The notes under the pieces are model-generated. The model worked only from the letters and a program-made list of their open reading frames with translations. It was not told the origin of the DNA and did not search any database. From contig NZ_NPML01000004.1 of assembly GCF_002252565.1 (NCBI RefSeq), positions 1-64,000 of the forward strand: a stretch of DNA of 64,000 nt. The letters are read 5' to 3'. This document shows, one piece after another, positions 1 to 2,839 of the stretch (position 1 is the first letter of the stretch; every line of letters begins with the position of its first letter). The stretch is from Petroclostridium xylanilyticum (lineage in GTDB: Bacteria > Bacillota > Clostridia > SK-Y3). The translations under genes and the position numbers were made by a program.

Positions 1-160
1 TTTCAAATCTATACATTCTCAATTTCCAATTTTATAGGGGTAAGATAAATTTTAAATAAAAGTCAATAAAATCAAAGGGTACAGGTCAAAAGTTGATAAA
101 ATTTTTGACACTACCGGAGAGCCAATAAAGCCAAAAAAATGATAAAGGAGCTGTTGGAAG

Positions 161-1285
161 ATGATAATAGCCCTGAAAGTCAGGCTTGAACCCAACAACA
201 AGCAAAAAACAAAATTGTTTCAGAGTGCAGGAGTTGCAAGATGGGCATATAACTGGACGCTTGCCAAACAAGAAGAAAATTATAAAAGCGGTGGCAAATT
301 CATTAAAGACGGAGACTTGAGAAAAGAATTAACGTTTTTAAAGAAGACTGAAAAATACAAGTGGCTTAATGATTACAGCAACAACATAACCAAACAAGCC
401 ATAAAGGATGCCTGTGATGCTTACTATAAGTTTTTTAAAAAGCTTGCCGATAAACCAAAATTTAAAAGCAGGAAGAAAAGCCAGCCAAAATTTTATCAAG
501 ATACCGAAAAAATAAAATTCAAAAACGGCAAGGTTAGATTAGAAAAAATTGGTTGGGTAAGACTTTCAGAAAAAGACAGGATACCGGAAAATGCAAAATA
601 TACAAACCCAAGGGTAAAGTTTGACGGAATACACTGGTATGTGTCTGTAGGCATTGAGGCGGAGCAAGAGGCTGTTGAGCTTACAGGCGAAAGTATAGGT
701 ATTGATTTAGGGATAAAGAATTTGGCTGTATGCTCAAACGGAATGACATTTAAAAACATCAACAAAACCAAAAGAGTTAAAAAATTAGAAAAGAAATTGC
801 GCAGGTTGCAGCACAAGGTATCAAACAAATACCAAAAAAACAAGGAAGGAGGAAGTTGCGTCAAAACAGGCAACATTATAAAACTTGAAAAAAACATTAA
901 AAAGTTGTACAAACGTCTTGATAACATCAGAACTGACAACAGGCATAAAGCAACTGCCGAGATAGTGAAAACCAAGCCATCAAGGATAGTTATGGAAAAC
1001 CTGAATGTCAGTGGTATGATGAAAAACAAACACCTGTCAAAATCAATATCAGAGCAGGGCTTGTTTGAATTCAAAACAATGCTTCAGTATAAATGCAGGA
1101 AGTATGGAATTGAATTTATAGAAGCCGATAAATGGTATCCTTCATCAAAAACCTGTTCAGCATGTGGGCATGTGAAAACCAAACTGTCACTGTCTGAAAG
1201 GGAATTTATATGTGAATGTTGCGGTGCTGCAATAGACAGGGATAAGAATGCAAGTATCAATTTATCAAGATATAAAGCATCATAA
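161..1285 (+). CDS. tnpB: TnpB, RNA-guided RuvC-like nuclease of IS200/IS605 family
   Basis: The 374-residue protein has the full TnpB layout: a basic N-terminal wedge/REC-like part, then a split RuvC nuclease. Visible active-site positions are D182 (GIDLGIKNLA), E279 (MENLNVSG) and D359/D361 (DRDKNASINL). A zinc knuckle lies between the second and third motifs with cysteines at 332, 335, 351 and 354. All catalytic motifs are intact and there is no frameshift, so the protein may be active. Family members cut DNA guided by an omegaRNA made from the 3' end of the element, which helps the element persist. The start follows AAAGGAG with good spacing. The stop codon lies inside the first hairpin of the predicted omegaRNA. 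Confidence 0.92.
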   Translation: MIIALKVRLEPNNKQKTKLFQSAGVARWAYNWTLAKQEENYKSGGKFIKDGDLRKELTFLKKTEKYKWLNDYSNNITKQAIKDACDAYYKFFKKLADKPKFKSRKKSQPKFYQDTEKIKFKNGKVRLEKIGWVRLSEKDRIPENAKYTNPRVKFDGIHWYVSVGIEAEQEAVELTGESIGIDLGIKNLAVCSNGMTFKNINKTKRVKKLEKKLRRLQHKVSNKYQKNKEGGSCVKTGNIIKLEKNIKKLYKRLDNIRTDNRHKATAEIVKTKPSRIVMENLNVSGMMKNKHLSKSISEQGLFEFKTMLQYKCRKYGIEFIEADKWYPSSKTCSACGHVKTKLSLSEREFICECCGAAIDRDKNASINLSRYKAS

Positions 1286-1402
1286 ATCACCAAAACGAAT
1301 TATGATGCTGTGTACCGTGAGTTACACGGGAATTCAAGCCTCTGGAGTGTCACATCAAACGATAGTAGGTTAGCCGAGGTCGGACACTATGAACGAGGAA
1401 GC
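1277..1402 (+). ncRNA. Candidate omegaRNA (TnpB guide RNA scaffold)
   Basis: Directly at the tnpB 3' end is a chain of paired segments: GCATCATAA (1277-1285) with TTATGATGC (1300-1308), CCGTG (1315-1319) with CACGG (1325-1329), and AGTGTC (1346-1351) with GACACT (1383-1388). The last arm is followed by GAGGAAGC at 1394-1401. Overlap of the tnpB stop with a structured right end is the usual arrangement of omegaRNAs, whose guide is read from the DNA just past the element. The 3' boundary, and so the guide, is uncertain by some bases. Confidence 0.55.
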
Positions 1403-1452
1403 AAACATAAACTTTTATAATGTTTTTGTAAAGTTTTATAAGTTTTGCGTAA

Positions 1453-2010
<558 letters not shown>

Positions 2011-2164
2011 AAATATAAAAAAGAGATGGATGATTAATGTATAATAAATTTTTATTATTATTTGTGTTTTGCTAGAGATATAGATTCTTAATCCCATGTA
2101 TATTTTCTCTCAATTAGCAGAAAATATTTCTGACAAGTTTCTGAATTTGAGGGGGAATATAACC

Positions 2165-2839
2165 ATGAGAAAGTTTATTATATCTTTACTTGTCTTATCA
2201 TTAACAAGTGGTGCGTGCTTCTATTACTATAAAGCGTGGACAACCGAGTCGGTATTATCCCGGTACGGTTCCCGCGGTCAGGAAGTGAAAAATATACAGT
2301 ACCAATTGAGAAAATGGGGATATTATAAAGGAAAGATTGACGGTATTTATGGCTGGAGAACCGCTCTGGCAGTCAGAAGATTTCAGAGAAAAAATGGACT
2401 GAGAGTTGATGGCATTGCCGGTCCGCAAACTCTGGCAGCGCTTGGTCTTCCTACAGGTAGGAGCACTGCAAAAGCCAGTACCAGTGCATCAGGAAATGTT
2501 TACCTGCTGGCAAGGGTAATCAATGGGGAAGCAAGGGGAGAACCTTACATAGGGCAGGTAGCAGTAGGGGCAGTCATACTTAACAGGGTAGAACATCCTT
2601 CTTTTCCAAATACACTTGCAGGTGTCATATATCAGCCGGGGGCATTTACTGCAATAACCGATGGACAGGTTCATGCCCAATTGGAATCTTCATCGGTAAA
2701 AGCAGCAAGAGACGCTTTGAATGGTTGGGACCCTTCAGGTGGAGCCATCTATTATTACAACCCTGCAAAGACCACAAATAACTGGATATATAGCAGACCG
2801 GTAATAAAGAGAATAGGGAAACATATATTTGCAAAATAG
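2165..2839 (+). CDS. sleB: Spore cortex-lytic hydrolase SleB-type
   Basis: The 224-residue protein has an N-terminal signal/anchor (residues about 5-22), a PG_binding_1 domain (about 33-92; YGSRGQEVKNIQYQL start) and a C-terminal Hydrolase_2 domain with NGEARGEP, whose E122 is the likely catalytic glutamate. SleB is a lytic transglycosylase of muramic-lactam-containing spore cortex during germination. The ATG at 2165 is chosen over an upstream in-frame ATG at 2096 because GAGGGGG precedes it at proper distance and a signal peptide follows at once. A perfect terminator follows the stop, so it is probably monocistronic. A truncated copy lies at 16892-17218. Confidence 0.9.
   Translation: MRKFIISLLVLSLTSGACFYYYKAWTTESVLSRYGSRGQEVKNIQYQLRKWGYYKGKIDGIYGWRTALAVRRFQRKNGLRVDGIAGPQTLAALGLPTGRSTAKASTSASGNVYLLARVINGEARGEPYIGQVAVGAVILNRVEHPSFPNTLAGVIYQPGAFTAITDGQVHAQLESSSVKAARDALNGWDPSGGAIYYYNPAKTTNNWIYSRPVIKRIGKHIFAK

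What the first reader, a model, noticed from the sequence alone, without database searches (positions are those of the whole stretch)
161..1402. Intact TnpB with structured 3' end just upstream of a sugar isomerase gene
All RuvC motifs and the zinc knuckle are intact and the stop codon lies in the first hairpin of the likely omegaRNA. No TnpA is nearby. The guide would come from DNA next to about 1402, within the D-lyxose isomerase promoter region, so the nuclease might also affect that locus's expression.
Basis: partly seen in the sequence, partly recalled or inferred. Interest (0 to 1): 0.5.

Follow-up and report, generated by a model that had tools for sequence, protein, structure and literature searches.

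The report
Jumping gene that splits ribosome-binding sites
This is a known type of bacterial jumping gene with an RNA-guided DNA cutter, but it and most of the relatives examined sit exactly between a gene's ribosome-binding site and its start codon, even at essential genes, which the papers we could search do not describe.

Summary
The TnpB at 161-1285 is real and looks functional (RuvC D182/E279/D361, four Zn cysteines, dN/dS about 0.1). It is of a described kind: IS607-family TnpB with a RAGATH-18-derived guide RNA (Rfam RF03064 at 1339-1400, 64 bits; closest solved structure 8IAZ, ISFba1 TnpB). A tnpA tail (118-189) is fused to the end of another IS at the contig edge; two sister copies carry intact tnpA.

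New, and family-wide: a start codon opening a reading frame follows the right end after 5-11 nt in 67 of 86 loci (11% at control positions), and in 61 of 75 further named loci (10%; 59 of 73 after collapsing similar flanks). Where left ends could be found, host flanks end in GAGG or GGGG in 51 of 60. The elements thus sit inside Shine-Dalgarno sequences, including those of murD and cysS, single-copy in this genome. A subgroup that looks intron-bearing lies inside genes instead (0 of 7 at starts). Ten literature searches found no description of this placement. Whether it is active targeting or survival is open.

The parts
1..115 (-). End of another multi-copy IS (about 2 kb, DDE transposase read on the minus strand), abutting the tnpA remnant
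   Evidence: Found at further places in the genome (11 matches, several partial); in five copies the sequence ends at the same base, after which the flanks differ except between the window and C5; transposase resembles IS6/IS240 DDE proteins, below the NCBIfam cut-off
116..189 (+). Remnant of the IS607 tnpA 3' end (in frame 118-189, stop 187-189), overlapping the tnpB start
   Evidence: Identical to the end of the intact tnpA of the C3 and C4-end copies; that tnpA is IS607 transposase, 234 bits
161..1285 (+). tnpB, RNA-guided endonuclease, 374 aa
   Evidence: dN/dS 0.07-0.10 against three relatives
1276..1309 (+). First hairpin of the 3' RNA; spans the last tnpB codons and the stop codon
1339..1400 (+). 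RAGATH-18 core of the guide RNA (reRNA)
   Evidence: Rfam RF03064, 64.3 bits, cut-off 44.9
1401..1455 (+). 3' flank of the reRNA and right end of the element, ending in GTAACGG (GG = 1454-1455)
   Evidence: Shared with copies at another locus; same ending in relatives
1456..1475 (+). Predicted 20-nt guide (start uncertain by one or two bases), containing the isomerase start codon
   Evidence: Inference from the border and from Ren 2024 and the ISXfa1 work (passages)
1465..2010 (+). D-lyxose-isomerase-like gene that lies directly behind the element and lacks a Shine-Dalgarno sequence
   Evidence: orthologs start at the same codon with a Shine-Dalgarno-like motif in 23 of 24 fetched loci

Best explanation
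An IS607-family element with TnpB and a RAGATH-18 reRNA that was inserted at the GG of a Shine-Dalgarno sequence (GGAGG type) in front of the isomerase gene. In such an insertion the purine-rich half stays at the left end, and the spacer plus start codon follow the right end. This is shown for sister copies and relatives; for this copy the left flank is lost, so it is inferred. The tnpB-reRNA transcript should read into the gene, and its last 20 nt (spacer, ATG, first codons) become the guide. TnpB should then cut a chromosome that has lost the element, because excision restores the Shine-Dalgarno (as TAM) next to the guide sequence (inferred from published work on this family). Later another IS became joined to tnpA in this copy, so it could move only with TnpA from the two intact sister copies (inferred). 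The gene behind the element has exchanged a strong Shine-Dalgarno for the element's AACGG leader and is expected to be translated less, but not silenced, since such insertions are found at single-copy essential genes (inferred).
For: Family: TnpB and RAGATH-18 matches, best solved homologue 8IAZ, reRNA covariation 23 of 27 pairs with 0 of 500 shuffles reaching it. Border: copy comparison. Placement: 67 of 86 loci have a start codon with an open frame 5-11 nt after the right end, control positions 11.4% and 6.4%; 61 of 75 further named loci, control 9.7%, 59 of 73 after collapsing similar flanks. Left flanks: GGAGG in 30 of 60, GAGG or GGGG in 51 of 60. Joined flanks pair with the anti-Shine-Dalgarno at a median of -10.3 kcal/mol against -3.3 for the occupied leaders, weaker in 44 of 45. 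Ten of ten chosen downstream genes belong to known families whose match starts near the N-terminus. Orthologs without the element keep a Shine-Dalgarno-like motif: isomerase 23 of 24, murD 4 of 4, against 19% of random 17-nt windows. No second murD or cysS was found in this genome.
Against: The left flank of this copy cannot be seen (contig edge and another IS). 19 of 86 and 14 of 75 loci fail the start-codon test, L138 of this genome among them. Left ends were recognised in only 65 of 112 elements. In the one annotated plasmid record inspected (L327) the annotated start lies 15 nt beyond the ATG that stands 7 nt after the right end. GGAGG sites are themselves enriched before genes (19 of 73 in the window). 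Cleavage, guide and effect on translation were not tested. C3 and C5 give conflicting left parts for the murD copy.
Confidence: 0.82

Rival explanations
1. The placement is passive: transposase and nuclease see only a short GGAGG-like motif wherever it lies, and insertions inside genes are removed by selection, so that those at ribosome-binding sites remain. (Compatible with the family assignment; it competes with active targeting only.)
For: GGAGG is already followed by a start codon in 19 of 73 cases in the window and 26 of 99 in flanks of other genomes, AGGAGG in 7 of 16 and 12 of 35. Intron-like relatives with similar left flanks persist inside genes. H. pylori IS607 needs only (G)GG in E. 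coli (passages).
Against: The elements (128 of 161) exceed both GGAGG and AGGAGG sites (P 2e-17 and 5e-8); many bacterial genes can be lost, so purging would have to be strong. Neither point is decisive.
Confidence: 0.55
2. The TnpB of this copy has been taken over as a regulator of the isomerase gene, in the manner of TldR proteins.
For: Stand-alone tnpB next to a metabolic gene, with a guide that covers its start codon.
Against: The nuclease residues are intact; near-identical copies lie at murD and elsewhere, so the link to the isomerase is not conserved; orthologous isomerase loci printed have no such leader.
Confidence: 0.04
3. A dying relic: tnpA is broken and the copy has no function left.
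For: tnpA is reduced to its last 24 codons.
Against: tnpB and reRNA match the intact C3 copy but for three base changes up to the right end; dN/dS 0.07-0.10 against relatives; two copies with intact tnpA are present.
Confidence: 0.12
4. As first read: the element ends near 1402 and the guide comes from there.
For: The Rfam core ends at 1400.
Against: 1401-1455 is shared by copies at another locus, and Ren 2024 reports a 3' flank of about 64 nt between RAGATH-18 and the guide.
Confidence: 0.01

Closest known systems
IS607 TnpB with RAGATH-18-derived reRNA (ISFba1; Ren et al. 2024, PMC11061315, PDB 8IAZ)
   Same: TnpB family (271 bits to 8IAZ), catalytic residues, RAGATH-18 core, order tnpB - 5' flank - RAGATH-18 - 3' flank - guide
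   Different: First hairpin overlaps the end of tnpB, whereas Ren et al. call the reRNA independent of the coding sequence; tnpA broken in this copy; placement in Shine-Dalgarno sequences is not mentioned in their main text
Group B IStrons (IS607 plus group I intron; Tourasse et al. 2014, PMC4227781, passages)
   Same: IS607-type transposase genes, TnpB-like ORF B, GG target
   Different: They carry an intron and lie mostly inside genes; the A copies with visible left half carry tnpA there instead
IS607 of H. pylori (eLife 2018, PMC6188088, passages)
   Same: Serine transposase, crossover at GG, no target duplication
   Different: Target preference given as (G)GG without further sequence; here a longer purine motif before start codons
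ISDra2 TnpB (IS200/IS605)
   Same: RNA-guided TnpB; 155 bits to 8bf8
   Different: Other transposase type (recalled); TAM and RNA differ according to Ren et al.

Membership tests
IS607 TnpB with RAGATH-18 reRNA | TnpB with RuvC D-E-D triad and Zn knuckle | tested here: met
   D182, E279, D361; C332, C335, C351, C354
IS607 TnpB with RAGATH-18 reRNA | RAGATH-18 RNA directly 3' of tnpB | tested here: met
   RF03064, 64.3 bits, 53 nt after the stop codon; covariation
IS607 TnpB with RAGATH-18 reRNA | Conserved 3' flank of about 60 nt, then a variable guide | tested here: met
   55 nt shared between copies, then different flanks
IS607 TnpB with RAGATH-18 reRNA | IS607 serine transposase in the element (80% of loci in Ren 2024 have both ORFs, 30% of these TnpA broken) | tested here: inconclusive
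   Only the tail is left here; intact in the C3 and C4-end copies
IS607 TnpB with RAGATH-18 reRNA | AGGAG or GAGGG TAM at the left end | tested here: inconclusive
   Left end of this copy not visible; sister copies have AAAAGGAGG and TTTAGGGGG
IS607 TnpB with RAGATH-18 reRNA | RNA-guided cleavage of DNA | not testable with these tools
   Needs an assay
IS200/IS605 TnpB element | Matches the IS200/IS605-specific TnpB model; accompanied by a tyrosine-type TnpA | tested here: not met
   IS200_TnpB model 261 bits, below its cut-off of 425 (the IS607_TnpB model, 197 bits, is also below its cut-off of 350); partner tnpA is IS607-type
TldR (nuclease-dead TnpB regulators) | Loss of RuvC catalytic residues (recalled) | tested here: not met
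   Triad intact
IStron | Group I intron in the element | tested here: inconclusive
   Rfam finds only a tRNA and RAGATH-18 in the window, but it also misses the intron-like stretch of L120 and L135; the left half of this copy is lost, and sister copies have tnpA there

The most novel reading that the evidence does not exclude
RAGATH-18 IS607 elements use the Shine-Dalgarno sequence itself as landing site and TAM: transposase and nuclease are co-adapted to a motif that stands before many Firmicutes genes, the right end leaves enough of a leader to keep even essential genes translated, and the guides are start-codon sequences. An insertion would then act as a reversible down-tuner of its gene, with reRNA maturation cutting the gene's own mRNA at its start codon.
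Probability: 0.33. Interest if true: 0.8.

Novelty: new member of a known kind. Interest (0 to 1): 0.57.

Why it matters
It offers a simple reading of the AGGAG TAM of this nuclease family: it is the ribosome-binding site. If true, these elements use a target that stands before many genes without breaking coding sequence, they persist at essential genes, and each insertion is a natural test of how a gene is translated after its Shine-Dalgarno is moved away. Relatives that look intron-bearing lie inside genes at a similar motif, which would give a comparison of two ways of sparing the host.

Tried and rejected
Right end at 1402: rejected by copy comparison. A guide fixed inside the element: rejected, because 1401-1455 is right end. 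An inverted match of 1410-1448 to 870-906 inside tnpB (87% of 39 nt) is AT-rich; not pursued. The first motif search for right ends took a too early AACAG in some loci (59 of 92 without the intron-like end passed); corrected, so the rule was refined after seeing the first set, and the named set is the cleaner test. 'Intron-like' rests on the right-end motif TATGCAACGG, on the absence of a tnpA frame and on group I intron core motifs that I recall; Rfam gave no support. A hidden replacement Shine-Dalgarno in the right end: none seen by eye, not tested. Pairing the window copy with the left flank at the C4 end: not decidable. No structure prediction was run, since a solved homologue exists. Other IS607 or IS605 TnpB elements were not tested as outgroups.

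Full report
What is there. The ORF 161-1285 encodes a 374-aa TnpB: NCBIfam guided_TnpB 326 bits, the narrower IS200 and IS607 TnpB models below their cut-offs; Pfam HTH_OrfB_IS605, OrfB_IS605 and Cas12f1-like_TNB. The best of 20 matched solved sequences is 8IAZ, 271 bits, deposited by Ren et al. as ISFba1 TnpB with reRNA and target. By that alignment the catalytic residues are D182, E279 and D361 (the chain appears to carry an alanine at the third). The Zn cysteines 332, 335, 351, 354 are invariant in five aligned sequences. dN/dS is 0.07-0.10 against three relatives; a fourth pair was saturated.

The RNA. Rfam places RAGATH-18 at 1339-1400 (64.3 bits). Sixteen chosen stretches from before the tnpB stop to the right-end GG give 27 predicted pairs, 23 with changes on both sides and 97.4% of cells paired; 0 of 500 shuffles and none of six slid structures reach this (the structure was derived from the same alignment, which favours it). 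The first helix, 1276-1283 with 1302-1309, overlaps the last codons of tnpB. A single-sequence fold has z = -2.2. Ren et al. describe 5' flank, RAGATH-18, 3' flank of about 64 nt, then guide. I read their sections 5, 6, 10, 12 and 38, the abstract and passages.

The borders. The genome has four tnpB places of this subfamily (A; one cut by a contig end) and a second subfamily (B, about 50% identical) with seven RAGATH-18 matches and further pieces of tnpB on C6. The C3 and C5 copies match the window through 1456 and then differ. The C3 and C4-end copies have an open IS607 tnpA upstream (C3 tnpA 234 bits). The window and C5 copies keep only its tail, joined at 115/116 to the end of another IS. 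The window starts at the edge of contig C4. C3 and C5 share the murD flank but differ at three positions in tnpB and in their left parts; I cannot say whether this is a variant or an assembly matter.

The pattern. Five distinct right junctions first looked at stood just before a start codon (six + strand loci). I then took every RAGATH-18 match of two surveys: 391 genomes of the class (22 with a match) and 398 of the phylum (17 with a match; this genome counts in both). That gave 101 loci. The right end was defined by TAACGG, CAACGG, AGTAGCAG or AGTGGCAG 28-80 nt after the RNA. Eight loci were dropped: L092, L096, L102, L106, L124, L133, L134 (no motif in range) and L025 (same flank as L024). 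Seven have the intron-like right end. Of the other 86, 67 have ATG, GTG or TTG 5-11 nt later opening at least 50 codons (55 ATG, 9 TTG, 3 GTG; 25 at distance 7, 14 at 9). Other positions of the same loci pass in 11.4% (downstream) and 6.4% (upstream); for ATG alone it is 55 of 86 against 5.2% and 2.8%. The 19 failures are listed there: by eye L127, L199, L201 and L213 lie just outside the distance limits and L173 has a short frame, while others are not at a recognisable gene start. In this genome 8 of 9 distinct junctions pass; L138 fails.

Replication. A scan of named genomes (268 relatives found, best 80 kept) left 75 loci after dropping L217, L233, L250 (flank in the first set), L270 (same flank as L257) and L232 (no motif). 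Here the right end was sought 125-260 nt after the tnpB match. With the same start-codon rule 61 of 75 pass, against 9.7% of control positions (ATG alone 47 of 75 against 4.8%). Collapsing flanks at least 60% alike (L275/L276, and L234 like L136) leaves 59 of 73. Binomial P is below 1e-40 for both sets. Species may be shared between the sets. In one annotated plasmid record (L327) an ATG stands 7 nt after the right end, but the annotation starts at the next ATG, 15 nt on.

Left side. A left end was recognised by an element-side motif in 65 of 112 elements with upstream sequence (a few, such as L100 and L278, may be false). Among the 60 without the intron-like right end, the host flank ends in GGAGG in 30 and in GAGG or GGGG in 51; in the window 73 of 5070 GG are the end of GGAGG. 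In the 45 that also pass the start-codon test, joined flanks pair with the anti-Shine-Dalgarno at a median of -10.3 kcal/mol, the occupied leaders at -3.3, weaker in 44 of 45 (a first version with padded leaders gave -10.5 and -3.5, 48 of 49).

Are these real genes? Ten downstream proteins, picked by eye from the passing loci, all match NCBIfam families with the best match beginning at residue 1-10 (murD 16) and near the profile start: murD, cysS, recX, rlmH, dapA, efp, argS, mutS, GAPDH, peptide deformylase (several are cut by the fetched stretch and recX is below its curated cut-off). No second murD was found at E 1e-60 (C3 ends in a piece of the same flank) and no second cysS, apart from a 25-bit match elsewhere. 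Of 24 isomerase orthologs fetched (51 other genomes had one) 23 have a Shine-Dalgarno-like motif before the aligned start, as do 4 of 4 murD orthologs, but not the two occupied genes; that loose motif occurs in 19% of 17-nt windows of the same loci.

Beyond the motif? GGAGG sites are followed by a start codon in 19 of 73 cases in the window and 26 of 99 in flanks of other genomes, AGGAGG in 7 of 16 and 12 of 35. The elements, 128 of 161, exceed this (P 2e-17 and 5e-8). Either more than the motif is recognised, or insertions inside genes are purged. The subgroup with right end TATGCAACGG lies inside genes, 0 of 7 at starts, with GAGG, GGAGG or GGGG left flanks; joined flanks keep a sense reading frame in 5 of 5 with a left end (L118 only if an in-frame TGA is read, which I take for a HesB-like selenoprotein from recall). 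In the stretches translated their left parts show no tnpA frame, and two that I printed show what I recall as group I intron core motifs, though Rfam finds none. Tourasse et al. 2014 describe IS607-type IStrons in GG targets; over all IStrons 118 of 202 sites were intragenic (passages).

Mechanism. Shown: borders, family, RNA structure, placement. Inferred: the guide (1456-1475, off by one or two depending on how much of the GG the scaffold takes; in ISXfa1 the flanking nucleotide belongs to the scaffold, passages); cutting of restored sites; lowered translation of the isomerase (its present leader -3.5 kcal/mol); mobilisation in trans. As elements persist at genes that are single-copy here and generally essential (recalled), some initiation must remain.

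Literature. The main text of Ren et al. has no 'ribosom', 'Shine' or 'start codon'; their discussion notes AG-rich TAMs next to the left end. None of the ten searches listed a paper that, from title, abstract or the passages I opened, describes this placement. Most listed papers I did not open, among them the one holding IS607, TnpB and Shine-Dalgarno together (PMC13418256, on TldR; abstract start only). The library lacks most subscription journals, so it may be in print elsewhere. The element is an ordinary member of a known kind; the family-wide placement is the point of interest.

Noticed in passing
L113, L114, L115, L118, L120, L121, L135 (genomes G282, G188, G248): RAGATH-18 elements with right end TATGCAACGG lie inside genes in the sense direction, with frames that rejoin in 5 of 5 checked; left parts look like an unrecognised group I intron (recalled motifs), which Rfam does not find.
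   Followed up: partly
window 1-115; L043-L051: End of a multi-copy IS of about 2 kb with a DDE transposase resembling IS6/IS240 proteins, joined to tnpA in two copies at the same base.
   Followed up: partly
G000 C4:182741, C7:510, C7:164880, C11, C13, C19, C29; tnpB pieces on C6: Second IS607/RAGATH-18 subfamily (B) in the same genome, about 50% identical TnpB; six of its seven right junctions stand before start codons (cysS and recX among them).
   Followed up: yes
G000 C3 end and C5 start (L002, L003): Same murD right flank assembled twice, with three differences in tnpB and different left parts (intact tnpA or other IS): variant in the culture or assembly error.
   Followed up: no
window 870-906 and 1410-1448: Inverted 39-nt similarity (87%, AT-rich) between tnpB and the right end; may be chance.
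   Followed up: no
window 1276-1309: The first reRNA hairpin overlaps the tnpB stop codon and covaries across relatives, although Ren et al. call the reRNA independent of the coding sequence.
   Followed up: yes
window 2096-2839: Spore cortex-lytic enzyme SleB (TIGR02869, 308 bits) lies next to the isomerase gene.
   Followed up: no
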